A stretch of 32,178 nucleotides of DNA from Elusimicrobiota bacterium (GTDB lineage: Bacteria > CAYTYR01 > UBA6262). The position numbers and the translations under genes were made by a program. The stretch lies in the NCBI GenBank assembly GCA_003153935.1, contig PMCA01000018.1, forward strand, positions 1 to 32,178. Reading direction: 5' to 3'. This document shows positions 3,145-28,596 of this stretch, one piece after another. The first letter of the stretch is position 1, and each line of letters starts with the position of its first letter. The notes under the pieces were generated by a model that was not told where the DNA came from, did no database searches, and worked only from the letters and a program-made list of their open reading frames with translations.

Positions 3145-3145
3145 T

Positions 3146-4411: not shown

Positions 4412-4414
4412 GCG

Positions 4415-7777: not shown

Positions 7778-7782
7778 ATTTT

Positions 7783-7811: not shown

Positions 7812-7831
7812 AATATTAACGAGGTAGTTCA

Positions 7832-9259: not shown

Positions 9260-9281
9260 ATCTTTTAGGAGGATTACTTAG

Positions 9282-10205
9282 TTGAAGATTCTAGTAACAG
9301 GCGGAGCAGGGTTCATCGGTTCCAATATCGTGGATGCATATTTAGCAGCCGGCCACCGGGTGGTGGTCATAGATAATCTATACAGCGGCAAGATGGCTAA
9401 CCTGAGCAAAAAGGCCAAATTTTACAAGGCTGACATCAGGGATGCCGGTAAAGTTGCGCAAATTTTTGCCCGGGAAAAATTTGACGTGGTTAACCACCAT
9501 GCGGCGCAAATGGATGTGAGGAAATCGGTTGAAGACCCTGTTTTCGATGCCCAGGTAAATGTGCTGGGAACGTTGAACCTTCTGGAGAACAGCGTCAAAC
9601 ACAAAGTAAAAAAATTCATCTTTGCTTCCAGCGGAGGTGTGATGTATGGCGAATGCGGTAGCAAAGCGCCGGCGGAAACTGTCCCGGCCAACCCTATGTC
9701 TCCGTATGGCGTGACCAAGCGTACCGCCGAGATATATCTGAATTATTATGCCGCCATCTATGGGCTTAAATACCTGATTTTCCGTTACGGCAATGTTTAT
9801 GGCCCGCGCCAGGATCCACACGGAGAAGCCGGAGTAGTAGCCATATTCATAAAAAGGATGTTTGCCGCACAAGCGGTTAACATTTTTGGCACCGGCAAAC
9901 AACTGCGTGATTATGTCTATGTGGGTGATGTAGTTAAGGCCAATTTGCTGGGACTGCGGACGGGAGTTAATGAAATAATAAATATCGGCACTCAGAAAGG
10001 CAGCAGTGTCAATCACCTGTATGATCTACTGTCCGCCATTACCGGATACCGGCAAGAACCTGTATATAAACCCGCGCGTTTGGGAGAACTGGACAAAAAC
10101 TTTCTGAATTACGGGAAAGCGAAAAGAATGTTGGGTTGGGAGCCAAAGATGGATTTTAAGGACGGACTGATAAAAACAGCGCAATATTTCCGGGAGTCAA
10201 AATGA
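9282..10205 (+). CDS. UDP-glucose 4-epimerase-like NAD-dependent epimerase
   Basis: This 307-residue extended SDR enzyme probably interconverts nucleotide sugars such as UDP-Glc/UDP-Gal or their derivatives. ILVTGGAGFIGSNIV is the NAD-binding motif. FASSGGVMYG (114-123) contains the catalytic Ser, and SPYGVTKRTAE holds Tyr142 and Lys146. FRYGNVYGPRQ is also standard. The start is TTG at 9282, chosen because a perfect AGGAGG (9267-9272) lies 9 bp upstream and because the glycine motif starts at the expected distance. Unlike the SDR gene at 1007-2008, the full catalytic triad is intact here. The next gene starts within its stop codon (ATGA). Confidence 0.93.
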   Translation: MKILVTGGAGFIGSNIVDAYLAAGHRVVVIDNLYSGKMANLSKKAKFYKADIRDAGKVAQIFAREKFDVVNHHAAQMDVRKSVEDPVFDAQVNVLGTLNLLENSVKHKVKKFIFASSGGVMYGECGSKAPAETVPANPMSPYGVTKRTAEIYLNYYAAIYGLKYLIFRYGNVYGPRQDPHGEAGVVAIFIKRMFAAQAVNIFGTGKQLRDYVYVGDVVKANLLGLRTGVNEIINIGTQKGSSVNHLYDLLSAITGYRQEPVYKPARLGELDKNFLNYGKAKRMLGWEPKMDFKDGLIKTAQYFRESK

Positions 10206-11257: not shown

Positions 11258-11272
11258 TGTCTTGGGGGTAAT

Positions 11273-12697
11273 TTGAGTACGGTAATAAGATTCGGCACTG
11301 ACGGGTGGCGCGGGGTAATAGCCCGCGACTTCACTTTTCATAATATTCGCCTTGTTACTCAGGCAGTTGCTGATTACCTTAAAAAGCAATCAACAATCAG
11401 CAATCAACAATCAACTGTTCTGGTCGGCTACGATTGCCGATTCCTTTCCCGGGAATACGCTCAGGCGGCAGCCCGGATATTGTCAGGTAATGGTTATAAA
11501 GTCCTGCTGGCGGGTGAACCGACGCCGACGCCAGCCATATCATACTCAGTAGTAAAGAATGAATTAGCAGGGGCGGTTATTATTACCGCCAGTCATAACC
11601 CCTATAATTTTAACGGTTTCAAATTCAAGACCTCCCAAGGCGTCTCGGCCGGACCGGAGGTTACGCGCCGGATCGAGGGGCTTTGCGGCAAGAGTAAACC
11701 TAAGGAAAATGAACGGCAGATCTCTCCCGCGGACCCGAAAACGGATTATTTACGGCATTTGGGCAAACTGGTTGACCTGTCGACGATGAAGAAAAGAAAG
11801 ATGAGGATTGTGATCGATCCTATGTTTGGCGCCGCCCAAAACTACCTGGAGGAATTATTAACCTCCGGCCGGATGAGCATCAAAAGCCTGAACAGTTATG
11901 TCGACCCGTTATTTGGCGGCGTAAATCCCGAACCGATCGCGGCCAATCTGGGGCTAATGCTCAAGGAAGTGAAGCGCACCGGCTCCGACATCGGTATCGC
12001 CTTTGACGGGGACGGGGACCGGATCGGACTGGGTGACAGGAATGGTAATTTTGTCAACTCGCACCAGATATTCTGCCTGTTGCTGCTGCACCTGGTCAGG
12101 AATAAGAAACAATCCGGGATGGTGGTAAAAACGATCTCTGGCACCTATTTACTGCAGAGGGTCTGTGACCGTTACGGATTGGAGCTTAAGGAAACGCCTA
12201 TCGGGTTCAAATATATAGGCGACCTGATGCTGAAAGAGGATGTCCTGATCGGCGGTGAAGAAAGCGGCGGAATCGGTTTTCGTGGCCATATTCCCGAACG
12301 CGACGGTATCCTTAGTGCTTTATATATGCTGGAGTTAATGGCGGTGTCGGGCCGGGACCTGGCGGCATTACGGAACGACCTGTTCAAAGAATTCGGGATT
12401 TCCTGTTACGACCGCTGTGATCTGGCCCTGGGGCATACCCATCATCACCATATTAACAAGCATGATTTCAGCCGGCAAATGGTGAAACTGTCGCAAACCG
12501 GCGGCCTGGCGGAGCTGATCATGGAGACCAGGGACTATGACGGGGTGAAGATGATCCTGCGGGATGACAGTTGGCTGTTGCTGAGGCCGTCCGGGACTGA
12601 ACCGGTGGTGAGGATCTACGCCGAAGCCGGGAATAGCGCTCAGGTTAAAAAACTCATTGACACTGGGCGCAGAATGGTGTACAAATTTAAGTCTTAA
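11273..12697 (+). CDS. Phosphohexomutase (phosphomannomutase/phosphoglucomutase)
   Basis: This 474-residue alpha-D-phosphohexomutase converts hexose-6-phosphate to hexose-1-phosphate, supplying the nucleotidyltransferases on both sides. IRFGTDGWRGVI opens domain 1. TASHNPYNFNGFK holds the phosphorylated Ser107, FDGDGDRIG (Asp245, Asp247, Asp249) binds Mg, GGEESGGIG contacts the sugar, and RPSGTEPVVRIY binds phosphate. The start is TTG at 11273, preceded by GGGGGT and giving the expected N terminus. Residues 39-48 (QSTISNQQST) are encoded by four tandem 7-base repeats between two conserved segments (ADYLKK and VLVGYDCRF), so this loop is repeat-derived. A His-rich TPALGHTHHHH-like stretch near residue 390 is unusual but short. 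Confidence 0.94.
   Translation: MSTVIRFGTDGWRGVIARDFTFHNIRLVTQAVADYLKKQSTISNQQSTVLVGYDCRFLSREYAQAAARILSGNGYKVLLAGEPTPTPAISYSVVKNELAGAVIITASHNPYNFNGFKFKTSQGVSAGPEVTRRIEGLCGKSKPKENERQISPADPKTDYLRHLGKLVDLSTMKKRKMRIVIDPMFGAAQNYLEELLTSGRMSIKSLNSYVDPLFGGVNPEPIAANLGLMLKEVKRTGSDIGIAFDGDGDRIGLGDRNGNFVNSHQIFCLLLLHLVRNKKQSGMVVKTISGTYLLQRVCDRYGLELKETPIGFKYIGDLMLKEDVLIGGEESGGIGFRGHIPERDGILSALYMLELMAVSGRDLAALRNDLFKEFGISCYDRCDLALGHTHHHHINKHDFSRQMVKLSQTGGLAELIMETRDYDGVKMILRDDSWLLLRPSGTEPVVRIYAEAGNSAQVKKLIDTGRRMVYKFKS
11387..11419 (+). repeat. Tandem 7-base repeat inside the phosphohexomutase gene
   Basis: Four consecutive heptamers read CAATCAA, CAATCAG, CAATCAA, CAATCAA at 11387-11414, followed by CTGTT. 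The last 17 bases (ATCAACAATCAACTGTT) are identical to the end of a heptamer array at 18769-18794 in the M6 protease gene. The repeat is translated in frame. Confidence 0.9.
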
Positions 12698-12716
12698 CGA
12701 TCAAATAGGGGTAAAT

Positions 12717-13757
12717 ATGAAGGCTATGGTAATGGCGGCGGGAGTAGGTACGAGGTTACGGCCTCTAACGCATGTAATTCCCAAACCGATGATACCGATA
12801 GTTAATAAACCGGTGCTGGAACACACCCTGGAACTGTTGCGGAAGCATAATTTCAGTGAAGTTGTCATTAATTTGCACTTTTATCCCCAGATGATCAAAG
12901 ATTATTTCGACGACGGCAGCGCCTGGGGCTTGAAAATAATATATTCCCAGGAAAAGAACCTGTTAGGAACGGCCGGTGGGGTAAAAAAAGTAGAAAAGCA
13001 TTTTGACGATACCTTCGTGGTGATGAGCGGCGACGGCCTGACCGATATCGACCTGTCCAAAGCCGTGGAGTTCCATAAGAAGAAAAAGTCATTGGCCACC
13101 ATGGTACTGAAAAAAATCGACTCACGTTTTGATTACGGCGTGACTCTGCTAGACCAGTATAAGCGGATCGAGAATTTTATTGAGAAACCGGCCTGGAGCG
13201 ACGTATTTGCCAATACGGTCAACACCGGTATCTATATCTTTGAGCCGGAGATATTTAATTATATCCCTGAGAATACTTTTTATGACTTTGGCCATGACGT
13301 CTGGCCATCCCTGCTTAAATCTAAAAAACCGATATACGGCTATGAAATGAGTTCCTACTGGTGCGATATCGGCAACCTGCAGGAATATAAAAGAGCGGAA
13401 CGGGACGCACTTGAAGGCAAGGTCGGCATCAGGTTTTCCGGCAGAAAGTTGTCGTCTGGCATATGGGTGGGGAAAAATACCCGGATACATCCCCAGGTCA
13501 AGATAAAGGCCCCGGTCATTATCGGTAATGATTGCCGGATAGAAAAAGGAGTAGTCATCGACAGCTTTACCACCATCGGCAATAACGGCCTGATCCACGC
13601 GGGGGCGCAGCTGGGCGATTGCATTTTATGGTCCGGCGTCAGGGTTTCTAAAGGCGTGCGCCTGCGCAACTGCATTATCGGCAATGACGCGGGAATAAAC
13701 GAGAATATTTCGGTATTCGAGGGCTCGGTTATCAATATCGAAGAAAACCGCCAGTAA
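12717..13757 (+). CDS. Sugar-1-phosphate nucleotidylyltransferase, second paralogue
   Basis: This 346-residue protein is a paralogue of the enzyme at 10202-11257. The catalytic domain has MAAGVGTRLRPLT (6-18), IPKPMIPIVNKP, LGTAGGVKKVE, and MSGDGLTD with Asp106. FIEKPAWSDV and NTGIYIFEPE follow, and the C-terminal part from about 250 shows beta-helix turns (VIIGNDCRIEKGVVI, LRNCIIGNDAGI). GDP-mannose pyrophosphorylase is the likeliest activity, with other NDP-sugars possible. The start is ATG 12717, after GGGG, rather than an upstream in-frame TTG at 12657 that would overlap the mutase gene. It lies 19 bp after the phosphohexomutase and 30 bp before metK. Confidence 0.9.
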   Translation: MKAMVMAAGVGTRLRPLTHVIPKPMIPIVNKPVLEHTLELLRKHNFSEVVINLHFYPQMIKDYFDDGSAWGLKIIYSQEKNLLGTAGGVKKVEKHFDDTFVVMSGDGLTDIDLSKAVEFHKKKKSLATMVLKKIDSRFDYGVTLLDQYKRIENFIEKPAWSDVFANTVNTGIYIFEPEIFNYIPENTFYDFGHDVWPSLLKSKKPIYGYEMSSYWCDIGNLQEYKRAERDALEGKVGIRFSGRKLSSGIWVGKNTRIHPQVKIKAPVIIGNDCRIEKGVVIDSFTTIGNNGLIHAGAQLGDCILWSGVRVSKGVRLRNCIIGNDAGINENISVFEGSVINIEENRQ

Positions 13758-16433: not shown

Positions 16434-17366
16434 ATGCTTAGTAAGAGAAAACTGATTGCGGTATTTCTTATTATGCTAGTGGCTTTTGGCTTAGCCGGAT
16501 GCAGCAAATCCACTAATATTTTCCGCTGGGCTCATAAAGGCGGGTCGGATACCAGTACCGATGCGCTTTTGTCCGATGGGCAGGCAGCTTTAAGCAGCAA
16601 GGACTTCAGCGACGCCTTAACTTATTACAACAAGATTCTGGATGGCAATCCTAATAATTCCCTGGCACTATACGGCAAAGCGCAATCCTTAGTGGGTCTG
16701 GGCGGTTTAAGCTTAGCCGACCTGATCGCCTCGGTCATCAAGGAAGCGCAATCCAGCGGTACCTCTACTGTAAGAGGTTATGAACTGGGTAAATTATTTA
16801 CCAAGAATGTCACCAGTGTATCCGACCTGTTGCCAGCGACTTTGGACCTGACCAAACTCTATAACACAGCCAAAGCCGTGGTGCCGGTACTGCAACAGAT
16901 CGCCGACGGCAACGGAGACGGACAGATACCGGCAGACGATGCCGATGTTAATATCAACCTGGCCTTTTTCATGACGGTCAGGTCGATTTGCCGTATACTT
17001 GACGATAACGGTGATGGTGTACCCGGCGGAACCGGGGACCTGGTTAAGGTAAACAGCGATTATACGGTAGTTCTACCCAATGCCAACACCTTAACTATAG
17101 CTAAACAAACTACTCTGCGTGACCAGGTCCAAGCGGGCTTGGATGACGAATTCGGTACTACGTCTACCCTAGGTGCGGTAAATTATCTGGAGCGGGCGAT
17201 CCTTAAGGTCAATTCTTCCTCTGATTCGTCTATCTCAAATTTGCGCACCAATATTAATGACCTGAAGGCCAGCATAAAGACCCAGATTGATACAAATGTG
17301 AATCCTAACCTTGATCCATCTATCAGTCCGAAGATCCTTTGGCATCCGCATGCCTCATTAATATAA
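16434..17366 (+). CDS. TPR-containing lipoprotein with an EF-hand-like calcium loop
   Basis: This 310-residue protein is not a recognised named family. Residues 1-23 are a lipoprotein signal ending in LAGC, so Cys23 would be lipidated. Residues ~47-90 look like a TPR unit (GQAALSSKDFSDALTYYNKI then NNSLALYGKAQSLVGLGG). DGNGDGQIPADD at 158-169 fits the EF-hand/dockerin loop consensus, and a second, poorer DDNGDGVPG loop follows. The start is ATG 16434 because AGGGAGGGG lies directly upstream and the lipobox is then placed correctly; an upstream GTG at 16401 would overlap the promoter. It is 11 bp before the PorV-like gene. Membrane-anchored TPR lipoproteins (SprE) occur in type IX secretion, but this protein is much shorter than SprE and homology is not shown. 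Confidence 0.8.
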   Translation: MLSKRKLIAVFLIMLVAFGLAGCSKSTNIFRWAHKGGSDTSTDALLSDGQAALSSKDFSDALTYYNKILDGNPNNSLALYGKAQSLVGLGGLSLADLIASVIKEAQSSGTSTVRGYELGKLFTKNVTSVSDLLPATLDLTKLYNTAKAVVPVLQQIADGNGDGQIPADDADVNINLAFFMTVRSICRILDDNGDGVPGGTGDLVKVNSDYTVVLPNANTLTIAKQTTLRDQVQAGLDDEFGTTSTLGAVNYLERAILKVNSSSDSSISNLRTNINDLKASIKTQIDTNVNPNLDPSISPKILWHPHASLI

Positions 17367-17377
17367 GGGGGATAATA

Positions 17378-18643
17378 ATGAAAAATATCAGAAAAGCTTT
17401 GTTATTATGTTTAACGCTCATTTTTATCCTTCCGGTTTTAGTGTGGGCGAACGAAACGCCAGTAATGATCAGGGGTATCAGGCCGCTGGGCATGGGTGGA
17501 GCTTTTACCGCTATTGCCGATGACCAGAACGCTTTCTTCTATAACGCGGCTGGTTTGACCCAGATACCCAAGTGGCAGGTGAACATAGCCAATATCCCGG
17601 TCATCGTTTCCAACGACACATTCGAAATGTATAAATGGATAAAAGACCATAATGACCAGTTGAAAAACTTCGACACCCAAGACAACGCAACCCGCACCAG
17701 CCTCATTAATGATATTCAGGACAATATCTCCAAACTGCGGGTACATGTTTCCGGTAGCATACTGAACCCTAATTTTATTTCCAGCCCGATGGGACTGACC
17801 AATAACCTTAAGCTGACCTGGGGCTTTGGCCTGTTCGATGTTTATGATGTCAATGTTCGGCTGAACTCGAGCCTGCTGGTGCCGTCGGTAGATACGACCG
17901 GAAGTATTGATTCTGCCACGCTCATCCCCGTCGCCGTTAAAATGGAGAAGATCCCTTTTGACCTGCCGGGTTCGTTATCCCTGGCCGGAACTTTCAAATT
18001 TATCAACCGGGGCAAGATAGAGGAATTAAGGAAATCGGTATTGGAGTTTGATAATTTCTCCCCGGCGCCCCAGTTCGGCGGTGGGCATGGACTGGACATC
18101 AGCTCGCTGTACCAGTATAATGAATATCTTAACTTTGGTTTAATGGTATCCGATTTTGGCGGTACGGTCATTAAATACGACGCCATAAATCCTAATACGA
18201 CCGATAAGGCGCATTTCTTTGGTATGGGATTTAACGTTGACCGTAATGATAAAGTCATTGCCAAGCCCGCGGTCGAGAATGTGATCGCGCCGAGAGTTAA
18301 TGTCGGCGTCGCTTACCGGCCGCAGAATTTTTATTACTGGAAGAATAAGTTCCTGCCGTTGACCCGTCATTTCGTGTTCGCCCTGGACCTGAACGATATC
18401 ACCAGCTCTACGGAAAAACTGACCGGTGCATCTTTCTTTAAGAAAGTGCATGCCGGCGGGGAATACCAGACAAAAATGCTGTCTTTACGCGGCGGTTTTA
18501 ACTCCGGTTATCCCTCTTTCGGCGTAGGGCTGAACCTCTGGCTGGTTAAGCTGGATTACGCCTTCTACGGCGATGAGCTGGGCAGATACGCCGGACAGAT
18601 CGTCGAATGGAACCATGCTATTAGCGCTTCCATCGGATTCTAA
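17378..18643 (+). CDS. PorV/FadL-type outer-membrane beta-barrel protein
   Basis: This 421-residue protein has a signal peptide (MKNIRKALLLCLTLIF..., cleavage probably after VWA at residue 24). Next comes the hallmark segment IRGIRPLGMGGAFTAIADDQ followed by NAFFYNAAGLTQIP, shared by the PorV/PorQ proteins and related FadL-like barrels. The remaining sequence alternates polar and hydrophobic residues, and it ends in Phe (ASIGF), typical of BAM-inserted barrels. In type IX secretion PorV binds the SprA pore, collects cargo by its C-terminal domain and passes it on. The presence of a sorting-domain protease next door and SprA downstream supports that role here. TraF-like proteins share the N-terminal motif and are the main alternative. 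The ATG at 17378 follows AAGGGGGA. Confidence 0.82.
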   Translation: MKNIRKALLLCLTLIFILPVLVWANETPVMIRGIRPLGMGGAFTAIADDQNAFFYNAAGLTQIPKWQVNIANIPVIVSNDTFEMYKWIKDHNDQLKNFDTQDNATRTSLINDIQDNISKLRVHVSGSILNPNFISSPMGLTNNLKLTWGFGLFDVYDVNVRLNSSLLVPSVDTTGSIDSATLIPVAVKMEKIPFDLPGSLSLAGTFKFINRGKIEELRKSVLEFDNFSPAPQFGGGHGLDISSLYQYNEYLNFGLMVSDFGGTVIKYDAINPNTTDKAHFFGMGFNVDRNDKVIAKPAVENVIAPRVNVGVAYRPQNFYYWKNKFLPLTRHFVFALDLNDITSSTEKLTGASFFKKVHAGGEYQTKMLSLRGGFNSGYPSFGVGLNLWLVKLDYAFYGDELGRYAGQIVEWNHAISASIGF

Positions 18644-18661
18644 TGAGCTAATTTAATTTGG

Positions 18662-18695
18662 GGCCGTCCCGATTTTAATCGGGGCGGCCTTTACT
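18662..18695 (+). terminator. Strong intrinsic terminator after the PorV-like gene
   Basis: GGCCGTCCCGAT (18662-18673) pairs with ATCGGGGCGGCC (18678-18689) over 12 bp with one G-U pair and a TTTA loop. A T-rich TTTACTTTATT follows. It separates the PorV-like gene from the M6 protease gene, which begins 40 bp later without a clear promoter of its own. Confidence 0.88.
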
Positions 18696-18728
18696 TTATT
18701 CAGCTGAGATCGAATAGTGGAGATATTC

Positions 18729-20450
18729 TTGAAAAGACTTTCGTTCTTCTTTCTGTTTTTGTTCCTAACTATCAACTATCAACAATCAACTGTTATTGCC
18801 GCTCCGCCTAATCCCCTGATCTACGACACCGGACCGCTGTCCCCCGAGATGCAATCGCTGGTTACTAAACCCCGTATACCTGTGCCCATGTTGCCTGCGG
18901 AAAGCGTCAGGCAAAGCGTCATCACCACCGGCACCGCTAAAATTATCGTCCTCCTGATAGAATTCACCGATGTAAAGCGGGCCGCCAGCCATACCAAGGC
19001 GTTTTTCGACAACATGCTCTTCAGCAAAGGTCTGGGTTATGGCAGTATGGAAGACTACTATAAGGAAAACAGCGATAATCATTTAAATTTAACCGGTACT
19101 ACCGGCGCTAATTGGTACGAGAGCGATCATACCATGGCCTGGTACGGAGGGGATTTTGGCGGGATCGATAACGCGACCGGGTCCATCTCCCGGCTGGTGG
19201 TGGAGGCGATACAAAAAGCCGACAACGATATTGACTTCTCGCAATATGACACCAATGGGGATGGTTTTGTGGATCATCTGATAATCGTCCATGCCGGGTA
19301 TGGACAGGAAAATTCGGGAAATACTAATGATATCTGGTCGCACAGCGGTGATTTCACTTATTCCAGCGGCGGGGTCTTGGACCCGGATGGTTATCTTACC
19401 AACGATGGCGTCCACATAAAAAATTATACCATGTTGAGCGAGTATTCCGAAGTGGGAATATTTTGCCACGAATTTGCCCATGACCTGGGGTTGCCCGACC
19501 TTTACAACACTCTGTATTATGGCGGCCGGGCGGTAGTGGGCGATTGGGATCTAATGGATGGAGGATCATGGCTGGGTCCGACACACGATGGCTCCATACC
19601 GGGACATATAAGCGCCTGGGGTAAAGTGCGCCTGGGTTGGGTGACCCCTAATGAACTGACCGACCAGGAAACCAATATCCAAGTGGCTACTTCAGGCAGT
19701 TCCAGTATTTTTAAGATACCGGTTATGAACGCCGCTGACCCGGTAAGCGAGTATTTCCTGGTGGAGAACAGGCAGCAGCAGAATTTTGACCGCTACCTGC
19801 CGGGAGCGGGACTCCTGATCTGGCACATAGATGATGCTATGTTGTCCTACGCGACCACTGATTCCGACGGCAATACGGGAACAGCGCTGGAACTGAATTT
19901 GGTTAATTCTGAGCCTAAGGTGCCGCACCGGGCGGTAAGACTGATGGAAGCTGACAATAATAACGCTTTGAACCAGGCCGGTGATCCGTTCCCGGGCACT
20001 AAGGATGTTACCAGCCTTAGCAGTTCGTTAAGTGACGGTTATAACGGGAAACCAGCTACTTTCAGCCTGTTAAACATGGGAACCGGGGCGGGTGACTTGA
20101 TGGTCATGAATTTCTACCAGGCTATTTTTAATAAGGCCTTGAGCATCACCAGTACTTATAATGCTCCTAACCCGGCGCCGGGCGGCCGGACTAAGATCAA
20201 ATTGATCCTGACCCAGGTCCTGGATGCGGGGGAGATTTCGTTAAAGATATTCAATGTGGCCGGTGAGCTGGTCAGGGAAGCCCGGGCGGACGAAATTATT
20301 ACCGGGTCCATAGCCAGCAATAAAGCTGTTTACGAGTTTTCCTGGGATGGTAAAAACAATAGCGGCAGCCAGGTGGCCAGCGGAGTGTATATTTACTTTT
20401 TCCAGGCGGGTAATCAACAGCAGGCAGGGAAAATAGCAGTTATAAAATAA
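18729..20450 (+). CDS. Secreted M6-family metalloprotease with type IX-style C-terminal sorting domain
   Basis: This ~573-residue protein is an exported zinc protease of the immune-inhibitor-A/M6 group. The start is TTG 18729, set by GTGGAG 6 bp upstream; the in-frame GTG at 18717 lies inside that Shine-Dalgarno. A hydrophobic signal peptide (KRLSFFFLFLFL...) is cut probably near VIAA. The catalytic motif HEFAHDLGLPD has zinc ligands His247 and His251 and general base Glu248; GDWDLMDGG resembles the Met-turn. From about residue 478 (NAPNPAPGGRTKIKLIL) to the C-terminal GKIAVIK is a beta-sandwich of the FlgD-like/type A sorting kind, with LKIFNVAGELV and WDGKNNSGSQVASGVYIYFF. Such domains direct cargo to type IX translocons. 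Part of the signal region (NYQQST) is encoded by heptamer repeats. The stop is immediately followed by the stop of the convergent lptG gene. Confidence 0.9.
   Translation: MKRLSFFFLFLFLTINYQQSTVIAAPPNPLIYDTGPLSPEMQSLVTKPRIPVPMLPAESVRQSVITTGTAKIIVLLIEFTDVKRAASHTKAFFDNMLFSKGLGYGSMEDYYKENSDNHLNLTGTTGANWYESDHTMAWYGGDFGGIDNATGSISRLVVEAIQKADNDIDFSQYDTNGDGFVDHLIIVHAGYGQENSGNTNDIWSHSGDFTYSSGGVLDPDGYLTNDGVHIKNYTMLSEYSEVGIFCHEFAHDLGLPDLYNTLYYGGRAVVGDWDLMDGGSWLGPTHDGSIPGHISAWGKVRLGWVTPNELTDQETNIQVATSGSSSIFKIPVMNAADPVSEYFLVENRQQQNFDRYLPGAGLLIWHIDDAMLSYATTDSDGNTGTALELNLVNSEPKVPHRAVRLMEADNNNALNQAGDPFPGTKDVTSLSSSLSDGYNGKPATFSLLNMGTGAGDLMVMNFYQAIFNKALSITSTYNAPNPAPGGRTKIKLILTQVLDAGEISLKIFNVAGELVREARADEIITGSIASNKAVYEFSWDGKNNSGSQVASGVYIYFFQAGNQQQAGKIAVIK
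18769..18794 (+). repeat. Tandem 7-base repeat inside the M6 protease signal-peptide region
   Basis: The heptamers CTATCAA, CTATCAA, CAATCAA (18769-18789) are followed by CTGTT. The final 17 bases ATCAACAATCAACTGTT are the same as at 11403-11419 in the phosphohexomutase gene. They encode the polar segment after the hydrophobic core of the signal peptide. Confidence 0.88.
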
Positions 20451-21536
20451 CTATTTGCGGACCTTTTTTACCAACAGCCAGACTGCGGCCGCACCAAATA
20501 ACAGGTTAGAGAACCAGGCCGCCAGCAGCGGCGTCAGCACCTTGTTTTCACCTAAAGCGTGTCCCACCTCGATCATCCCCCAAAAGGCGAAGGCAATAAC
20601 CATACCCGAACCGAAGTTCATTATTTTACCGGCTTGTTTACTCATAAGAGCGAAGGGTATACCCAACAGCATTATTATCACATTGGCCATAGGATAAGCG
20701 AATTTCAGGCCCAGTTCCACCTGCTCCTTGTTAGCCGGGATGCCGCTCTTGCGCAGCCGATTTATGTATTGTTTCAATTCACTATAGTTCATCTCATCCG
20801 ATCTCTTGGCTTCCCGCAGAAAATCGGCGGGAACTTCAGGAAAGACCCGTTCCAGCTGGCTGAACTTTTCTTCCTTGGTTATATTACCTCGTTCGTCAAA
20901 CTCCCTGCTCAGTCCGTCGGTGAATACCCAGCGCTGGTCCTGCCAGGTACCCTTACGCGCTATCAGTTGTCGTATCAGGGCTTTGTGCTGGTCTAATTCA
21001 TCGATCAAAACATCCTGCATGATATTACGTTCCCCGTCATAAAAGCGGATGTTGTAGATGCGCCGGTCCTCGCCAAAAAGGATGACATTATCGCGTTTGA
21101 GGTAATCCAGGCCCTCTTCGTGCCGGATCTTGTTCTTTTCAAAGAGTTTGGCCTTATAGGCCAGTGGTGACGCCAGCTGCTCGTTGAAAGTGAAGGTGAA
21201 CAGGCTGACCAGGAGTCCAAAAACCAGCAAAGGGGCGATGACCCGGTAGAGGCTTACTCCCGAAGCTTTCAATGCGGTTAGCTCGTTATTTCTTTGAAAG
21301 TTGCTTAAGGTGAACAGGGTAGCCAGCAGGGTAGCTACCGGCATCACCTGCACTACCCAAAAGGGCAGGCGGTAAACCAGATAGATCATGATCTTGGCGA
21401 TAGGCGTTTTATAGTTCAGGAAAGTGTCGACCTTGTCGAAGAATTGCGAGATCAACACCACTAGCGCGAAACAACCCAGTGCGAAAAAGAAAGACTGTCC
21501 ATATTCTTTTAAAATGTAGCGGTCGATGATCTTCAT
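20451..21536 (-). CDS. lptG: LPS export permease LptG (YjgP/YjgQ family)
   Basis: This 361-residue inner-membrane protein belongs to the LptF/LptG permease family, which with LptB extracts lipopolysaccharide and passes it to LptC and the periplasmic bridge. MKIIDRYILKEYGQSFFFAL is the classic N terminus. Transmembrane helices lie in about residues 12-120, and the central ~150 residues are a periplasmic beta-jellyroll. Three helices follow at about 270-358 (KFAYPMANVIIMLLGIPFAL). NELTALKASGVSLYRVIAPLL is the conserved coupling-helix region that contacts LptB. The ATG overlaps the stop of lptF by 4 bp. Naming of the pair (F first, G second) follows gene order and is provisional. Its stop abuts the stop of the M6 protease gene on the other strand. 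Confidence 0.92.
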   Translation of the reverse strand: MKIIDRYILKEYGQSFFFALGCFALVVLISQFFDKVDTFLNYKTPIAKIMIYLVYRLPFWVVQVMPVATLLATLFTLSNFQRNNELTALKASGVSLYRVIAPLLVFGLLVSLFTFTFNEQLASPLAYKAKLFEKNKIRHEEGLDYLKRDNVILFGEDRRIYNIRFYDGERNIMQDVLIDELDQHKALIRQLIARKGTWQDQRWVFTDGLSREFDERGNITKEEKFSQLERVFPEVPADFLREAKRSDEMNYSELKQYINRLRKSGIPANKEQVELGLKFAYPMANVIIMLLGIPFALMSKQAGKIMNFGSGMVIAFAFWGMIEVGHALGENKVLTPLLAAWFSNLLFGAAAVWLLVKKVRK

Positions 21537-22636
21537 AATTTTCCTTTAATGGTTTTGAAGGAGAAGAAAAAGCCCAGCCCGCCGATCAGCAGGTTAGGTA
21601 TCCAGACGGCCAGCGCCGGCTGGACAAACCCGCGTTCGCCCAGGGTTATGCCCGAGATCAGTAAAATATAATAAACAAAGATAAGCGCCAGGCTCAGGCC
21701 GAAACCCAGGCTGCGGGCGGTCTGTTTGGGCCGCAATCCGAGGGGAATGCCGATCAGGCCAAAAGCCAGGCAGGCGTAGGGTATGGCCGAGCGCATATGA
21801 TATTCCACCAGTATGGTATTGGCGTTGATCTTGCTGTTGCGCAAGCGGGTGATCTCGTTCCGCAACTCATGCTTATTCATTTCTTTAAGGCTCTTGTAAT
21901 TAATGGCGTTATTGGGCAGGTTATCCTGTAAATTTATCACCATCCGGTAGGTTTCGAAATTTATCCGGTTATACTTATAGAAATTGTCTTTATCCACCAG
22001 GTTGCGGCTGCCGTTGCGCAGCTGCAGGATCAGGCCCTGTTTGGGATCGGAATAGAAATTGCCGTCTTCGGCGGTTATCATCAGGGGGAGCTGGTCCTTT
22101 TCGTTCTTATAGATGATCACTCCCTTAAAAGTAGAATCATCTTTATTTATCTGGTCGAAATATAACCTGGTATCCTTGATCTCAATGAAGGTGTGTTCCT
22201 CCAGTTTCAGCACCGGTTGCTTAAATATTATCTCCGAGTAGAGATTCTTGAACCGGTGATTGGAGGCGGGAACTATTTGGTCGTTAAAATACAGGCCGAG
22301 CAGTGAAAAGAGCACGCAGATGGCCAGCAGGGGGGACATCAGGCGCAGGGTGGACACTCCGCTGGCTTTTATGGCGGTGATCTCGTTATCCTGGTTCAGG
22401 CGCCCCAGGCTGAGCAGTATGGCCAGCAGGGTAGCCATCGGCAAGCTAAGGGTCAGGGTAAAAGGCAATGTGTATGATAACAGGCGGGCGATGGTCAAAA
22501 AGCCCACACCTTTGTTGATGACCATATTGATCATATCAAAAATCCGGTCCATCAACAAAATGAAAGTGAACAGGAAAATCGCCAGCGCGAAGGAGGCCAG
22601 GGTCTCTTTAAGAATATATTTGGTCAATATCCGCAT
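21533..22636 (-). CDS. lptF: LPS export permease LptF (YjgP/YjgQ family)
   Basis: This 367-residue protein is the partner permease of the LptBFG transporter. MRILTKYILKETLASFALAIFLF opens the first helix. ITAIKASGVSTLRLMSPLL is the conserved coupling segment, a beta-jellyroll domain spans about residues 120-250, and ACLAFGLIGIPLGLRPK begins the last helices. No Shine-Dalgarno is visible before the ATG at 22636, and a TATAAT on the minus strand ends only 6 bp upstream, so the mRNA may be leaderless. The gene is transcribed away from the SprA-like gene and forms an operon with the downstream permease gene. Its presence is direct evidence for a lipopolysaccharide-type outer membrane. Confidence 0.92.
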   Translation of the reverse strand: MRILTKYILKETLASFALAIFLFTFILLMDRIFDMINMVINKGVGFLTIARLLSYTLPFTLTLSLPMATLLAILLSLGRLNQDNEITAIKASGVSTLRLMSPLLAICVLFSLLGLYFNDQIVPASNHRFKNLYSEIIFKQPVLKLEEHTFIEIKDTRLYFDQINKDDSTFKGVIIYKNEKDQLPLMITAEDGNFYSDPKQGLILQLRNGSRNLVDKDNFYKYNRINFETYRMVINLQDNLPNNAINYKSLKEMNKHELRNEITRLRNSKINANTILVEYHMRSAIPYACLAFGLIGIPLGLRPKQTARSLGFGLSLALIFVYYILLISGITLGERGFVQPALAVWIPNLLIGGLGFFFSFKTIKGKL

Positions 22637-22642
22637 GAATTT

Positions 22643-22648
22643 ATTATA
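22643..22648 (-). promoter_or_regulatory. Candidate -10 box of the lptF-lptG operon
   Basis: On the minus strand TATAAT occupies 22648 down to 22643. A transcription start about 7 bases downstream would fall on or next to the A of the lptF ATG at 22636. No convincing -35 box is seen at 16-18 bp. Confidence 0.5.
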
Positions 22649-22671
22649 TACTATTTTGCCCTAATATTCTA

Positions 22672-22700
22672 TTGAAAAAAAATCAATTATGCGGTATATT
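22672..22700 (+). promoter_or_regulatory. Sigma-70-type promoter of the SprA-like gene
   Basis: TTGAAA (22672-22677) and TATATT (22695-22700) are separated by exactly 17 bp. The expected start near 22707 leaves a ~38-base leader with GGAGAGAG before the TTG start codon at 22745. It lies in the divergent spacer shared with lptF. Confidence 0.78.
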
Positions 22701-22744
22701 TACCCTAATACCCATCCATTTTATGCTTTGATTACGGAGAGAGC

Positions 22745-25700
22745 TTGAGGAAGCTAATTATAGCGTCTTTAATAATAGGCGGTTGCGCCCTGGGCCTGGC
22801 CGATTTTATCCTGGCCCAACTATCTCCCCGGAATGAAAAACCTACCCTCGTTACCCCTGTAAATAACCGGCAGAAATTATCCCCAAGCGCCCCAGACTAC
22901 CAGCTGCAGTTAAGTACATCTACTTTGGCGACCCAACAAGAGCCAAAGTCACTGCGCTTGCTCGCAGGTGAAAAGCCCATGGGTTTTGACCGCCGGCATT
23001 GGGTGTCCCTGATGGAACAGCAGGAACGCGCCAGGCTGGTCGCGGCGCCTCCGGCGGAGGGGATTGAATTCAATCTTCCCTACGAATCCAAACTGAACAT
23101 CTCCGGACGTAAATCCATCAATATGAAATACGGCCGGATCAAGTTCAAGCATCCGGATCTTACCACCATAACCGGCACTCCGGTCGGATTAACGAACGGT
23201 TTGGATATGCAACAGGAATTGCAGGTGAAGATCAAGGGTAAGGTGGGGCCCAAGATCCATGTGGATATCGATTATGACGACACCAAGGACGATAAGCGGG
23301 CGATATCCGTTATGTATAAGGGCGACCCGGATGAGGTGGTGCAGGAGGCCGCTTTCGGCGACATCGACCTGTCACTACCCCAGACGGAATTTGTCGCTTA
23401 CAATAAGAAATTGTTCGGCGGCAGGATCGACACCATGCCGGTACAGACCGAGAATAACCGGTTGCGGGTAATGGCCATCGGCAGCCGGACCAAAGGGGTC
23501 ACGGAGACGAAGAACTTCAAGGGCTCAACTACCTTTGAAAAGCGGGAAGTCTTCGATACCCAGTATGTCCGGCGTAAATATTATAAGATATTTCCTGACC
23601 CGGGTAAAGCGGCTACCGATCTGCCTATCGCTACGGGCAGTGCGGAAGTATATATAGATAATAAGATCGGCACCGATAATAACAATGCGACCCTGATGAC
23701 GGTGGAAGATATAAACGGCAATCAGTATGCCGGGTATTTTGACCTGCAGTACCCGGGTATCGATTACACTCTGGATTTTCGCACCGGTATCATTACTTTT
23801 AACAAGAACATCACCCAGAATATGGTTATCGCCGTGGACTACCGGCGGCCCAATGGCACCAAACTTTCGGCCGACGACGGACGCCGGAAAATAGTCAAGG
23901 ATGAATTTGAAACATCCATAACCAGGGAAATGAAGAATTTCTACAGTCTGGGCAGCACCAAGATAGTCAATGACCCTAATCTATTCCTGGTCAAGATTAT
24001 GGACCTGAATCGTAACGAACTAAATCTCAGCTCTTTCCCTTTTACCGTAGATTATGATTTCGGGACCATCCAGTTCACGGCTGATACGCCTTTCGACCCG
24101 CCGTACTCGGATGTGTACGCTAATATACCTAACCACCATTTTATCATTTACGTGGAATACCGTCATAGCGTTAAAACCTACAATTTAAGGCCCAACCTGG
24201 TCATTGGCAGTGAAACAGTCAAGGTGGATGGGCGCCAGCTAACCCGGGATGAAGATTATTTTATTGATTATGAGATTGGCTTGCTGACTTTCCTGAAGGA
24301 TGCCATCATAACTGACAATACCGATATTGAAGTGAGCTATGAATACCAGCCCTTTGGCGGCCAGTTCGAGCAAACGATAGTCGGTGCCCGGGCGGAGTAC
24401 GAATATGGCAATAACTTTACCCTGGGATCGACCACTTTGTACAACTGGGCCACCCCGCCGGGTAATATCCCTGATGTGCGTTCCACTCCCGAGAGCGTGC
24501 TGGTGGTGGAAGCCGATTCCAAATTGAAACTGCGACCGAGACGTTTCTGGAACCTGAATCTGGATGGCCTGAAAATGGACCTGGGCGCGGAGGTCGCCCA
24601 GAGCCGGTACAGCCCCGATACTTTCGGCAAAACCATGATTGACGATATGGAAGGGTCGGAAATTTCAGAAACTATTTCCACTGACCGGAATATCTGGCAG
24701 CTGGGCAGCCTTAATCAGCCGCGCGCGTCCCGCGGCACTTTAGATTGGCTGAACGGCGACGAAGATGTTAAAACCATTAATCCTAATTCTTCGGATACAG
24801 GGCGGGAGCAGGTTTTGGACCTGCATTACGGATTACCCGACCTTGGTTCCTGGGTTTCCCTGGCTTATGTAATTGCCCCGGGCGGGATTGACTTGAGCAA
24901 GCATAATTCGATTAAAATGTATATTTTCGGTAGCGGGCAGGGTGAGGAACTGCATATCGATCTGGGCCGGATAAATGAAGACGCGGATGGCGCTGGCGGT
25001 TTTGACCACGATGTGATCGTTAACGGCCACGTAGTTTGGCCCAAGGGTTCTCCCAAGACCGAGGACCTTAACGGCAACGGCGTATTGGACGTGGGTGAGG
25101 ACACCGGCTGGGATTTCGTGAACCCGGATGGAAGTATCACTAAGATTGGCGCCGGTAACGGCCGGCTGGACAGCGAGGACCTTGATGGCGACGGGATTTT
25201 AAGTACGGCGGAAGTGGTTCCCAACCTGACTACTTCCAGTAACTACCCGATCAAGGTAAATTGGCAGGGCTGGCGGCAGGTTATTTTACCCCTCGATATC
25301 AATTCTGCCAACCTGGTAAATTGGCAAAACATCAAGGAAATGCGCATCTGGATGCGTAAGGGCGCCAGTACCACAGGTACGGTCAGGTTGGCCAATATGG
25401 AGATAGTCGGCAACCGTTACGATCCGCCAGTTATTACCGGAACCGGTACTATGGAGGTCAGCGTCAAAAGCAATGAAGATAACGGAGATGTATCACTGAA
25501 AGATAACGGCGACTACCAGTGGCTTTATAAAGAATCGGTTAATAAGGACCTGAGCCAGAACAAAGCCCTGGTTTTGAAATATACCAGCCTGGGTACCGAT
25601 TCAGACGCTTCCACCCGGCGGCAACTGACTAAATCAGAGGATTATTCCAAGCACCGGAAATTGCGCTTTTTTGTTTTTGGCGACAATAACGGGGAAACAT

Positions 25701-27853
25701 TCTACATCCGGGTTGGCGCCGACGATACCAATAATTATTTTGAATACCGCCAGCCGATCAACTGGACCGGCTGGCAATTAGTTAGCATCGACCTGCCTAA
25801 CGGGTTCACCTCCGTGGTCGGCACTCCCAGCCTGGAAAATATCCTGAATATACGGCTGGGCCTGATCGGCAATGGTTCCAGCGGCGAGATCTGGGTGGAC
25901 GAGATCCACCTGACCGATCCCGTGGTCGAGATCGGCAGGGCATCCAAATTTACCTTGGATACCGCCTATACGGATTGGGGCACGGTGAGCGGCAAGTATC
26001 GCGATATGGATAATGATTTTACCATGGTGGGAGTCCCCAAAATAAACCAGAGCACGACCGCGCGTGATATTAGTTCCACGATCACAAAATTAAGTATCCT
26101 GCCGGTCAATTTCAGCTGGAACAAGACCACGACTACCACTCCGACCAGTTTCCGCACCACGTTGTCAACCCAATCGGAAGGTATAGTTATCAGTGATAAC
26201 CTGAACGTGGGCACGACCCTGACCAAGGAGAACGTACCGCAGGTAGGTTTGAGCTTTAACCGCAATAATATAGATTCCAACTTGCAGCAGAAGATAGACA
26301 AGACCTTCACTTACGGCACCCGGGTCTCCTATAATGTCAAACCGCCGATACCGGCGATAGAGAAGGCGCATGGCGCCTCTAAATACCTGTTCTGGAAACC
26401 GCTGGACCTGCTGATACCTGATACCTTTAACAGTTATTACAACCGCATTCAGGAATATATATCTTATGACCCCAGCCTGAAAGTGAACGCCGGATTTGAA
26501 GACCTGGTAAATGAGACTGATGATTGGCAGTTTAGCCCGACTTACCAGTTCCAATTAGGGACCACCCCGAAATACGCTAATCGCTTGAATTTCATGCCGA
26601 CCTACCGGCGCCGCCGCACGGCGGAAACCAAAGATCTATACAGCGGGGACATTTTCAAACGCAATAAATTTGATTCCCAGACCGTTGACGTATCCCTGCA
26701 ACCGGATCTTTACCGGTGGATACACCCGACTTTCAGGTACCAGGTGAATACCAGTGAAACCTATTCCGTGGACGCTTCCAGCAAGAACGTGAACCGTTCC
26801 TCGACCACCGAGGTAGGGTATCTGCTGCGCCTGGTGGACCTGACCAGCTGGAAGCCGGTCAATTCCCTGAATTTCAATAACCGCTATAAGATCGATGAAG
26901 GCGATATTTACGAGAACCTGAATTCCGACTTTAACAGCATGAACAAACTCTGGGTGCGCAACCGCTTGAACCTGGATAACCTGAAATCCACTAATCAACA
27001 ATTAACTTTTGAAACTACGGCGCGCTGGTTGCCTTTGGAATTCCTGAACCTGCAGGGCGGCTGGCGTCCTTTCAAAACTATTGATACTACTACCCGGTAC
27101 AGCAAGATCGACGAGCATAGAAGTACCACCGGCACGCCGTTTGATTCCTATACCAAGGTCTGGCCGGACCTGCAGGTGACTATCAGCGAACTGGAAAATT
27201 TCCCCAAGCTGTCCCTGTTCCTGGAAGCCAGCCAGCTGATCGTCAATTACGCCCTGAAAGACATCAACCAGTCCAATATTTCCTTCTCCCGGGAGAAGGA
27301 CTGGAGCACCAAATGGCGCGGGAAACTGTTCCGCTATTATACTTTGATCCTGAACACCGATGACTCCCGCCTGAAACAGGTGGACCAGGATAGCGTGTTA
27401 ATGCGCACTTTCCGCTCCTCGGCCAAAGGTATCCAGGTCAATTTCCGCACCGCCAACAATTATATCTGGGTCTTTAGTTACGACGACCGCAAACAGCTGG
27501 ACCTGGACCGTTTTGGCATAGTGACTCTGCTGGATTACTCCCGTACGCCGGCCATTAAAGTTGACAAGGACCTGGAATTTCCCCATGGCCTTAAGTTACC
27601 GTTCATTAAGAAAGTGTTCCAGCTGAAAAACCTGATCCACTTTAATTCCCAGGTCAAAACCATCATCCAGCGGAGCAACCTGGCGGACAAGAATAATAAT
27701 ACCTATAGCGCCGAAGTGAATATGGATTACAACGTCAGTTACAACTTCGTGGTAACTTTTGGCTTGAACGGGAGCCTGGTCAAGAACCAGGTGCTGGACA
27801 TCAATGATTACTACACTTATGGAGGGGTTTTTAAGCTGCTGATCAGGTTCTAA
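22745..27853 (+). CDS. sprA: SprA/Sov-like outer-membrane translocon protein of a type IX secretion-like system
   Basis: At 1702 residues this is the largest gene in the window. The start is TTG 22745 with GGAGAG upstream, followed by a signal peptide (MRKLIIASLIIGGCALGLAD). Residues ~100-250 resemble the SprA N-terminal region: KIHVDIDYDDTKDDKRAISV, YKGDPDEVVQEAAFGDIDL and LFGGRIDTMPVQTENNRLRV line up with remembered features of SprA. IDDMEGSEISETI (632-644) matches the conserved D-D-F/M-E-G-S motif of the family. Two acidic loops near 773-820 (EDLNGNGVLDVGEDTG and EDLDGDGILSTAEV) look calcium-binding. The C-terminal ~600 residues are rich in alternating beta-strands, and the protein ends in Phe (LLIRF) as BAM substrates do. 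In Bacteroidota SprA is a giant 36-strand barrel that exports folded cargo with PorV, and is about 2400 residues, so this copy is compact. The closest alternative is another large barrel of unknown function. Confidence 0.85.
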   Translation: MRKLIIASLIIGGCALGLADFILAQLSPRNEKPTLVTPVNNRQKLSPSAPDYQLQLSTSTLATQQEPKSLRLLAGEKPMGFDRRHWVSLMEQQERARLVAAPPAEGIEFNLPYESKLNISGRKSINMKYGRIKFKHPDLTTITGTPVGLTNGLDMQQELQVKIKGKVGPKIHVDIDYDDTKDDKRAISVMYKGDPDEVVQEAAFGDIDLSLPQTEFVAYNKKLFGGRIDTMPVQTENNRLRVMAIGSRTKGVTETKNFKGSTTFEKREVFDTQYVRRKYYKIFPDPGKAATDLPIATGSAEVYIDNKIGTDNNNATLMTVEDINGNQYAGYFDLQYPGIDYTLDFRTGIITFNKNITQNMVIAVDYRRPNGTKLSADDGRRKIVKDEFETSITREMKNFYSLGSTKIVNDPNLFLVKIMDLNRNELNLSSFPFTVDYDFGTIQFTADTPFDPPYSDVYANIPNHHFIIYVEYRHSVKTYNLRPNLVIGSETVKVDGRQLTRDEDYFIDYEIGLLTFLKDAIITDNTDIEVSYEYQPFGGQFEQTIVGARAEYEYGNNFTLGSTTLYNWATPPGNIPDVRSTPESVLVVEADSKLKLRPRRFWNLNLDGLKMDLGAEVAQSRYSPDTFGKTMIDDMEGSEISETISTDRNIWQLGSLNQPRASRGTLDWLNGDEDVKTINPNSSDTGREQVLDLHYGLPDLGSWVSLAYVIAPGGIDLSKHNSIKMYIFGSGQGEELHIDLGRINEDADGAGGFDHDVIVNGHVVWPKGSPKTEDLNGNGVLDVGEDTGWDFVNPDGSITKIGAGNGRLDSEDLDGDGILSTAEVVPNLTTSSNYPIKVNWQGWRQVILPLDINSANLVNWQNIKEMRIWMRKGASTTGTVRLANMEIVGNRYDPPVITGTGTMEVSVKSNEDNGDVSLKDNGDYQWLYKESVNKDLSQNKALVLKYTSLGTDSDASTRRQLTKSEDYSKHRKLRFFVFGDNNGETFYIRVGADDTNNYFEYRQPINWTGWQLVSIDLPNGFTSVVGTPSLENILNIRLGLIGNGSSGEIWVDEIHLTDPVVEIGRASKFTLDTAYTDWGTVSGKYRDMDNDFTMVGVPKINQSTTARDISSTITKLSILPVNFSWNKTTTTTPTSFRTTLSTQSEGIVISDNLNVGTTLTKENVPQVGLSFNRNNIDSNLQQKIDKTFTYGTRVSYNVKPPIPAIEKAHGASKYLFWKPLDLLIPDTFNSYYNRIQEYISYDPSLKVNAGFEDLVNETDDWQFSPTYQFQLGTTPKYANRLNFMPTYRRRRTAETKDLYSGDIFKRNKFDSQTVDVSLQPDLYRWIHPTFRYQVNTSETYSVDASSKNVNRSSTTEVGYLLRLVDLTSWKPVNSLNFNNRYKIDEGDIYENLNSDFNSMNKLWVRNRLNLDNLKSTNQQLTFETTARWLPLEFLNLQGGWRPFKTIDTTTRYSKIDEHRSTTGTPFDSYTKVWPDLQVTISELENFPKLSLFLEASQLIVNYALKDINQSNISFSREKDWSTKWRGKLFRYYTLILNTDDSRLKQVDQDSVLMRTFRSSAKGIQVNFRTANNYIWVFSYDDRKQLDLDRFGIVTLLDYSRTPAIKVDKDLEFPHGLKLPFIKKVFQLKNLIHFNSQVKTIIQRSNLADKNNNTYSAEVNMDYNVSYNFVVTFGLNGSLVKNQVLDINDYYTYGGVFKLLIRF

Positions 27854-27882: not shown

Positions 27883-28596
27883 ATGACTAAACTCTGGAAC
27901 ATCCTTCTGAATCTTGTCTATCCGCTAAAGTGCGAGATCTGCGAACAGGAGCTATCCCTGACCGCCGCCTGCCGGATCTGTCCAGCCTGCAGAGGTAAAA
28001 TAATCAAAATTACCGACCAGTATTGCCTGCGCTGCGGCAAACCCTTGCAGATAGAACCAACGGTGTGCCTGGAATGCCGGCAGAATGACCGGATCTATTT
28101 TGACAGCGTTCGGGCGGCCGGTATCTACCAGGGCGTATTGCGGGAGAGTGTTCGCGTCCTCAAATATAATGACCGGAGTTGCCTGGGCCGAGAGTTAGGC
28201 GAATTAATGGTAGAAGCCTACCGTAAGCACTTTGACTGGGCGGATTTTGATTACCTTATCCCGGTGCCCTTATACCGCAAGCAGTGGCGGAAAAGGCAAT
28301 ATAACCAGGCGCAGGTGCTCTGCCTTCATCTGGCGGAAAAAACTGGGATACCGGAACTGGCGGGAGGGTTGGTCAGATCCAGGGAAACCAGGCCCCAATA
28401 CCAGCTGACCCGGCAGGAGAGGGGAGTAAACCTGCGCGGAGCTTTCCGGGTAAACCCCAAGTATGACCTGGCCGGGAAAAGGGTGCTGGTAATAGATGAT
28501 ATATCCACCACAGGAACCACCATTAATGAATGCGCCAGGGTCCTTAAGCAGTCGGGGGCAGAAGAAGTCCATGGATTGGTTCTGGCTCACGGATAA
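27883..28596 (+). CDS. comF: ComF family phosphoribosyltransferase-like protein
   Basis: This 237-residue protein belongs to the ComF/GntX family, linked to DNA uptake in competent bacteria and found widely elsewhere. The N terminus carries zinc-ribbon cysteines (CEICEQ, CPACRGK, CLRCGK, CLECRQ). The type I phosphoribosyltransferase fold follows, with IPVPLYRKQWRKRQYNQA and the PRPP-binding motif VLVIDDISTTGTT starting at residue 201. The length is normal. The ATG at 27883 lacks a clear Shine-Dalgarno and sits 29 bp after the SprA-like gene, so it may be translated from the tail of that transcript. There is no evidence here of other competence genes. Confidence 0.93.
   Translation: MTKLWNILLNLVYPLKCEICEQELSLTAACRICPACRGKIIKITDQYCLRCGKPLQIEPTVCLECRQNDRIYFDSVRAAGIYQGVLRESVRVLKYNDRSCLGRELGELMVEAYRKHFDWADFDYLIPVPLYRKQWRKRQYNQAQVLCLHLAEKTGIPELAGGLVRSRETRPQYQLTRQERGVNLRGAFRVNPKYDLAGKRVLVIDDISTTGTTINECARVLKQSGAEEVHGLVLAHG

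What the first reader, a model, noticed from the sequence alone, without database searches (positions are those of the whole stretch)
16434..27853. Type IX secretion-like locus: PorV-like protein, sorting-domain protease and SprA-like translocon side by side
A PorV-like barrel, an M6 protease with a type IX-style C-terminal sorting domain and a 1702-residue SprA-like protein lie within 10.5 kb. In Bacteroidota these are translocon, shuttle and cargo. Here they sit in a chromosome with an Elusimicrobia/Omnitrophica-like flavour, beside lptFG and with no GldKLMN or PorU genes in view, so this may be a divergent or minimal version.
Basis: partly seen in the sequence, partly recalled or inferred. 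Interest (0 to 1): 0.85.

Follow-up and report, generated by a model that had tools for sequence, protein, structure and literature searches.

The report
Motor-less type IX-like secretion in Elusimicrobiota
This bacterium, and nearly every sampled member of the neighbouring phylum Elusimicrobiota, carries the outer-membrane channel, shuttle proteins and cargo tags of a secretion system thought to belong to Bacteroidota and their kin, without any recognisable copy of its motor, and usually with one shuttle gene encoded beside each cargo gene.

Summary
ORF 22745-27853 is a divergent SprA (NCBIfam SprA E=5e-47; F. johnsoniae SprA structure E=7e-17). The M6 protease ends in a domain whose profile best matches the PorZ and PorU sorting domains. 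The window's PorV-like protein is the weakest member of the genome's PorV-family set. SprA occurs in 131 of 150 Elusimicrobiota genomes and in all five held genomes of the window's own small phylum, usually divergent from lptFG. Whole-genome profile searches of 25 SprA-bearing genomes found no GldM or GldN, only marginal GldL hits, and PorU hits confined to its sorting domain. No positive-control genome was available and GldK was not searched. New here: PorV paralogues (8-35 matches per genome) typically sit directly beside a sorting-domain cargo gene (29 of 37 sampled; about 1.4% of ORFs carry the domain). This resembles Bacteroidota type B cargo/SprF pairs, but with type A-like tags and PorV-family carriers. 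Best reading: a divergent type IX-like system with cargo-dedicated carriers, energised by something other than a recognisable GldLM motor. Homologies and gene pairs are shown; secretion and energisation are inferred.

The parts
16434..17366 (+). TPR lipoprotein (lipobox LAGC); role unknown, conserved beside the PorV-like and M6 genes in two other loci
   Evidence: weak TPR/BamD hits; PDB hits are generic TPR only; same gene order in L057 and L098
17378..18643 (+). PorV/FadL-type outer-membrane barrel (ORF opens at TTG 17339; ATG 17378 avoids overlap with the upstream gene)
   Evidence: NF033709 PorV_fam E=9e-11, below cut-off; model top fold match F. johnsoniae PorV 6h3i_F E=7.5e-6, FadL/TodX similar, model confidence low
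18717..20450 (+). M6 metalloprotease with intact HExxH and C-terminal sorting-like domain; predicted cargo
   Evidence: TIGR03296 E=1e-66; CHEFAH motif; the 10 family members near sprA/lptFG all keep HExxH, with similar C-termini
20130..20447 (+). C-terminal Ig-like sorting domain of the M6 protease
   Evidence: alignment A2 of 15 own-genome C-termini; 7-stranded AF2 model, pLDDT 75.6; PorZ and PorU are the best PDB sequence matches
20451..21536 (-). lptG
   Evidence: PF03739 E=3.5e-88; TIGR04408 232.9 bits
21533..22636 (-). lptF, divergently transcribed from sprA
   Evidence: TIGR04407 230.6 bits, at its cut-off; an lptF/G gene lies immediately upstream and divergent in 41 of 62 informative sprA loci
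22745..27853 (+). sprA-like outer-membrane translocon, 1702 aa (TTG start as called)
   Evidence: TIGR04189 E=5e-47; 6h3i SprA E=7e-17; full-length orthologues at 58-62% identity in three genomes of the same family, 40% in a fourth genome of the same phylum
27883..28596 (+). comF/gntX-like phosphoribosyltransferase; conserved neighbour, probably unrelated in function
   Evidence: TIGR00201 E=1.8e-27; immediately downstream of sprA in 43 of 62 loci

Best explanation
The window holds the translocon gene (sprA) and one cargo gene (M6 protease) of a divergent type IX-like secretion system that is nearly universal in Elusimicrobiota and in the window's own small neighbouring phylum. Cargo proteins with N-terminal signal peptides reach the periplasm by Sec, and their C-terminal Ig-like domain is recognised at the SprA channel. 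A PorV-family barrel, usually encoded directly beside the cargo gene, docks at the channel, picks up the domain and carries the cargo out through the outer membrane. With no PorU sortase recognised, the domain is probably not removed, and the dedicated PorV-type barrel probably stays on as the cargo's anchor, as SprF does for type B cargo in Flavobacterium. Carrier extraction, which in Flavobacterium needs the GldLM motor, must here be driven by an unrecognised or different energy source, or by BAM-coupled supply of new carriers. Shown: homology of all three components, gene pairing, co-occurrence, failure to detect GldLMN and PorU. Inferred: secretion itself, anchoring, energisation.
For: SprA. 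Terminal domains: all 15 own-genome matches end at the protein's C-terminus, 14 in Lys and one in Arg; profile matches PorZ, PorU, the T9SS substrate chain 8glj_D and gingipain domains in the PDB; seven-stranded Ig-like model. PorV: an own-genome paralogue's only PDB sequence match is F. johnsoniae PorV, E=1e-8. Pairing: 9 of 11 evaluable PorV-type loci in the own genome adjoin a terminal-domain gene; 28 of 37 elsewhere lie directly downstream of one and 1 directly upstream, against 13 of 952 background ORFs. Co-occurrence: terminal domains in 18 of 21 SprA+ and 2 of 19 SprA- Elusimicrobiota genomes. Cargo heads are extracellular types: subtilase, GH2/GH72-like, fn3, Big domains, M6. No GldM/GldN/PorU peptidase and no convincing GldL in 25 genomes. 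No CxC tail on 49 PorV paralogues, whereas SprF and PorG use one to bond to GldK. Background.
Against: No experiment shows secretion. SprA, the window's PorV-like protein and the M6 terminal domain's T9SS-specific hits all score below curated cut-offs. FlgD-type Ig domains share the terminal domain's fold, and the generic Ig fold dominated the structure search, with no match at E<=0.001. The GldM and GldN profiles rang nowhere and no positive-control genome could be included, so a diverged motor is not excluded; GldK, SprE, PorG and other parts were not searched. Some SprA+ genomes (3 of 21) had no terminal-domain hit, and two SprA- genomes had several (possibly incomplete bins). The two groups were not corrected for phylogeny. 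Anchoring by the carrier is analogy only.
Confidence: 0.68

Rival explanations
1. A conventional type IX system: the motor (GldLM), ring (GldKN) and sortase are present but too diverged for the profiles, or are replaced by a TolQR/ExbBD-type motor, and the PorV paralogues are used as in Bacteroidota.
For: SprA itself is very diverged (1702 aa against 2403 in F. johnsoniae, below cut-off). GldM and GldN searches rang nowhere, with no positive control. Energy is needed to eject the carrier in F. johnsoniae.
Against: The same search method found SprA, PorV and terminal domains readily in these genomes, yet GldM and GldN gave nothing in 25 genomes and GldL only three marginal hits at E about 1e-3. 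PorU's profile hit only its sorting domain region. PorV copies are numerous and paired with cargo, unlike the single PorV that serves all type A cargo in F. johnsoniae.
Confidence: 0.27
2. The SprA-like protein serves outer-membrane lipid or glycan traffic (it sits divergent from lptFG and near a surface-polysaccharide cluster), the PorV-like barrels are FadL-type transporters, and the terminal domains are ordinary FlgD-type Ig domains.
For: lptF/G immediately upstream and divergent in 41 of 62 informative sprA loci; glycosyltransferase cluster at 1-13757; FadL/TodX fold similarity of the window's PorV-like protein; FlgD matches to the terminal domain.
Against: The terminal domain sits at the very C-terminus of every own-genome match and matches PorZ and PorU better than FlgD. 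PorV-cargo pairing far exceeds background. SprA and terminal domains co-occur. An own-genome PorV matches PorV alone in the PDB by sequence.
Confidence: 0.1
3. Contamination or recent horizontal gain of a few Bacteroidota genes.
For: T9SS genes have been described as absent outside FCB phyla (PMC11285876).
Against: sprA sits in conserved chromosomal synteny in dozens of Elusimicrobiota MAGs, is present in 131 of 150 genomes of the phylum and in all five held genomes of the window's phylum, and forms a deep tree of Elusimicrobiota and neighbours.
Confidence: 0.02

Closest known systems
Bacteroidota type IX secretion system, type A cargo (SprA/Sov, PorV, PorU, GldKLMN/PorKLMN; TIGR04183 sorting domain)
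   Same: SprA homologue, PorV-family barrels, C-terminal seven-stranded Ig-like domains closest to those of PorZ and PorU, hydrolase and adhesin-like cargo
   Different: No GldM, GldN or PorU peptidase and no convincing GldL recognised; SprA about 700 residues shorter than in F. johnsoniae; many PorV paralogues paired with cargo, instead of one shared PorV
Bacteroidota type B cargo with cognate PorP/SprF carriers (PMC12618676, PMC9143113)
   Same: Carrier gene commonly directly downstream of its cargo gene; cognate pairing
   Different: Carriers are PorV-family, not PorP/SprF; terminal domains are type A-like; no Cys-Xaa-Cys tail for bonding to GldK
T9SS reported in other FCB phyla (Chlorobiota, Ignavibacteriota, Rhodothermota, Gemmatimonadetes, Cloacimonadota, Fibrobacterota; list in PMC11285876)
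   Same: T9SS components outside Bacteroidota
   Different: [quoted passage not shown] whether those lineages also lack the motor was not examined here

Membership tests
Type IX secretion system | SprA/Sov outer-membrane translocon | tested here: met
   TIGR04189 E=5e-47, four stretches, below curated cut-off; 6h3i E=7e-17
Type IX secretion system | PorV-family carrier protein | tested here: met
   own genome has seven NF033709 hits above cut-off, best E=4e-59; 24 of 25 genomes have one above cut-off; the window's own PorV-like protein is below cut-off
Type IX secretion system | Cargo with C-terminal Ig-like sorting domain | tested here: met
   15 own-genome proteins, domain at the very C-terminus; PorZ and PorU best PDB sequence matches; FlgD matches more weakly
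Type IX secretion system | GldLM (PorLM) proton-driven motor | tested here: not met
   GldM none and GldL only three marginal hits (E about 1e-3), none in the own genome, across 25 genomes; no positive-control genome, so strong divergence is not excluded
Type IX secretion system | GldKN (PorKN) ring | tested here: inconclusive
   GldN none in 25 genomes, no positive control; GldK not searched
Type IX secretion system | PorU sortase (C25-type peptidase) | tested here: not met
   the NF033707 hits listed cover only about residues 836-1095, the C-terminal part; the list was truncated at the weaker end
Type IX secretion system | SprE/PorW, SprT, PorP, PorG and other accessory parts | not tested
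Type IX secretion system | SprA-dependent secretion of cargo | not testable with these tools
   needs a mutant or localisation experiment

The most novel reading that the evidence does not exclude
Elusimicrobiota use a motor-less type IX-like system in which type A-like cargo each travel with their own PorV-family carrier, which remains as the uncleaved cargo's outer-membrane anchor, so neither a sortase nor a GldLM/GldKN energy chain is needed.
Probability: 0.4. Interest if true: 0.87.

Novelty: new variant of a known kind. Interest (0 to 1): 0.74.

Why it matters
If right, type IX-like translocation is not confined to the FCB group but is a near-universal trait of another phylum, and SprA with PorV-type carriers may be the ancestral core to which the motor, ring and sortase were added. 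It also makes an open question testable: what energy, if any, is needed to pull a carrier-cargo complex out of SprA. In F. johnsoniae this step needs the motor (PMC10994853); here no recognisable motor is found. The cargo-PorV gene pairs give a ready list of cognate shuttle-cargo couples and of the surface enzymes of a largely uncultured phylum.

Tried and rejected
Taking the window's PorV-like gene as the system's main shuttle: rejected as the default because seven stronger PorV homologues exist elsewhere. TPR lipoprotein as SprE/BamD: only generic TPR similarity. Structure search with the terminal-domain model alone: not decisive, since generic Ig folds dominate and no match reached E<=0.001, although T9SS chains 8glk_D, 5m11 and 6za2 appear in the list. 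Structure of the PorV-like protein: PorV first but FadL-type proteins nearly equal, and the model is weak. Taxon titles of some SprA-bearing contigs (Sumerlaeota, Clostridia, Caldiserica) were not taken as evidence of other phyla, because at least L035 groups with Elusimicrobia-labelled loci in tree and synteny. Two adjacency misses (L176, L193) rest on a wrong ORF choice and were counted as contig-edge cases, so the 29 of 37 is approximate. Literature: no paper in the open-licence library linked T9SS to Elusimicrobiota; two of the three co-mentioning papers were opened and do not claim it; most subscription papers are not in the library.
Full report
WHAT IS THERE. The large protein (22745-27853, 1702 aa) matches NCBIfam SprA TIGR04189 at E=5.3e-47 over four stretches, although at 159.9 bits it is under the 200-bit curated cut-off. 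Orthologues were found in all five held genomes of the window's phylum. An alignment of five matches the solved F. johnsoniae SprA at E=7e-17, in collinear blocks. The protease (18717-20450) is an M6 enzyme with an intact HExxH motif and a C-terminal domain hit by FlgD_ig, CHU_C and Por_Secre_tail. The PorV-like protein is weak: 41.9 bits against a 90-bit cut-off for NF033709, and its low-confidence model has PorV and FadL-type barrels as nearly equal nearest folds. Between protease and sprA lie lptG and lptF. Left of the locus is a surface-polysaccharide cluster. A TPR lipoprotein gene precedes the PorV-like gene.

THE SORTING DOMAIN. The protease's last 106 residues have relatives in 14 other proteins of the 1.75 Mb genome. 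Each match ends at the protein's C-terminus, with Lys (14) or Arg (1) as last residue. A profile of the 15 matches the C-termini of PorZ (8e-11) and PorU (1e-9) in the PDB, then FlgD (3e-6), then the T9SS substrate chain 8glj_D (1.5e-4) and, weakly, gingipain. The predicted fold has seven strands, as described for type A domains (PMC12618676). The structure search was dominated by generic Ig folds, with T9SS chains among the hits and none at E<=0.001, so the sequence result carries the weight.

PHYLUM-WIDE DISTRIBUTION. The genome-contig scan brought in 80 SprA loci, nearly all titled Elusimicrobia(ota) or unnamed. In 150 genomes drawn evenly from the phylum of G009, 131 have SprA. The tree is deep; the window groups with the loci titled UBA6262 and NC_groundwater_1672, inside a clade of Elusimicrobia-labelled and neighbouring lineages. 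sprA is divergent from an lptF/G gene in 41 of 62 informative loci and followed by comF in 43 of 62. The order TPR lipoprotein, PorV-like, M6 protease, lptGF, sprA recurs in L098 and L057, and parts of it in L034, L060, L065, L069 and L096.

CARRIERS PAIRED WITH CARGO. PorV-family profiles match 8 to 35 times per genome in 25 SprA-bearing genomes. In the own genome, 9 of 11 evaluable PorV-type loci adjoin a terminal-domain gene, usually with the carrier directly downstream and a short gap. Among 40 further PorV hits, two from most genomes, 28 lie directly downstream of such a gene, 1 directly upstream, 8 have none and 3 were scored as contig-edge cases. Only 13 of 952 ORFs from the sprA loci carry the domain. 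The binomial figure, 1e-38, overstates the case because paralogues are not independent, but the contrast is plain. In F. johnsoniae, type A cargo all use one PorV, while type B cargo commonly have a cognate PorP/SprF gene directly downstream (PMC12618676). Here type A-like domains are paired with PorV-family carriers: an arrangement that mixes the two. Cargo heads include subtilase, GH2/GH72-like, fn3 and Big domains.

CO-OCCURRENCE. Terminal domains (E<1e-5) occur in 18 of 21 SprA+ and 2 of 19 SprA- Elusimicrobiota genomes (Fisher p=3e-6). PorV hits at E<1e-15 occur in 19 of 21 and 4 of 19 (p=1e-5). The SprA- set includes small, possibly incomplete or reduced genomes, and relatedness was not corrected for.

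WHAT IS NOT FOUND. In 25 SprA-bearing genomes GldM and GldN gave nothing and GldL three marginal hits, none in the own genome. The PorU profile hits listed fall only in its C-terminal part. The tool warns that the GldM and GldN results lack a positive control. GldK and accessory parts were not searched. None of 49 PorV paralogues has a Cys-Xaa-Cys motif near its C-terminus, and 34 end in an aromatic residue. SprF and PorG use such a tail to bond to GldK (PMC12635249).

HOW IT PROBABLY WORKS. By analogy with the F. johnsoniae mechanism (PMC10994853), the cargo's terminal domain binds a PorV-type carrier docked at the SprA opening, and the pair leaves sideways into the outer membrane. In F. johnsoniae the leaving step needs the GldLM motor. 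Here either another motor drives it, or continual supply of dedicated carriers does; the data do not decide. Lack of a recognised sortase fits a carrier that stays bound as anchor. These last steps are inference.

NOVELTY. A 2024 paper lists T9SS in FCB phyla and states that the genes are absent from other phyla (PMC11285876). No paper in the searchable library was found that assigns T9SS to Elusimicrobiota. I therefore rate it a new variant of a known kind, with the caution that most subscription papers could not be searched.

Noticed in passing
L154:778-2409 (-), own genome contig C7: A 544-aa protein appears to fuse a PorV-family barrel (NF033709 E=5.5e-12, N-terminal) to Wza-type polysaccharide export and SLBB domains (PF02563 E=1e-16).
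   Followed up: partly
window 20451-22636 and 22745: lptF/lptG divergent from sprA is conserved across much of Elusimicrobiota (41 of 62 informative loci); a functional link between LPS export and the translocon is possible but untested.
   Followed up: partly
window 1-13757: Surface-polysaccharide/LPS biosynthesis cluster (glycosyltransferases, two heptosyltransferase-family genes, DegT aminotransferase, undecaprenyl sugar transferase, sugar nucleotidyltransferases).
   Followed up: partly
L148:1015-2454 (-); also L171, L173: Some PorV-family proteins carry long C-terminal extensions; in L148 the extension contains a TPR repeat.
   Followed up: partly
L151/L155 (own genome contig C17 end) and L153 (contig C14 start): A PorV-family gene next to a terminal-domain ORF is split into two ORFs near a contig end, and a near-identical PorV tail starts another contig; possibly a duplicated or frameshifted pair, or an assembly break.
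   Followed up: no
L105, L107, L108 (Endomicrobium/Endomicrobiellum loci): Termite-gut Endomicrobia keep sprA; the one genome searched (G024, 1.3 Mb) has low counts of terminal-domain and PorV matches (4 and 8).
   Followed up: partly
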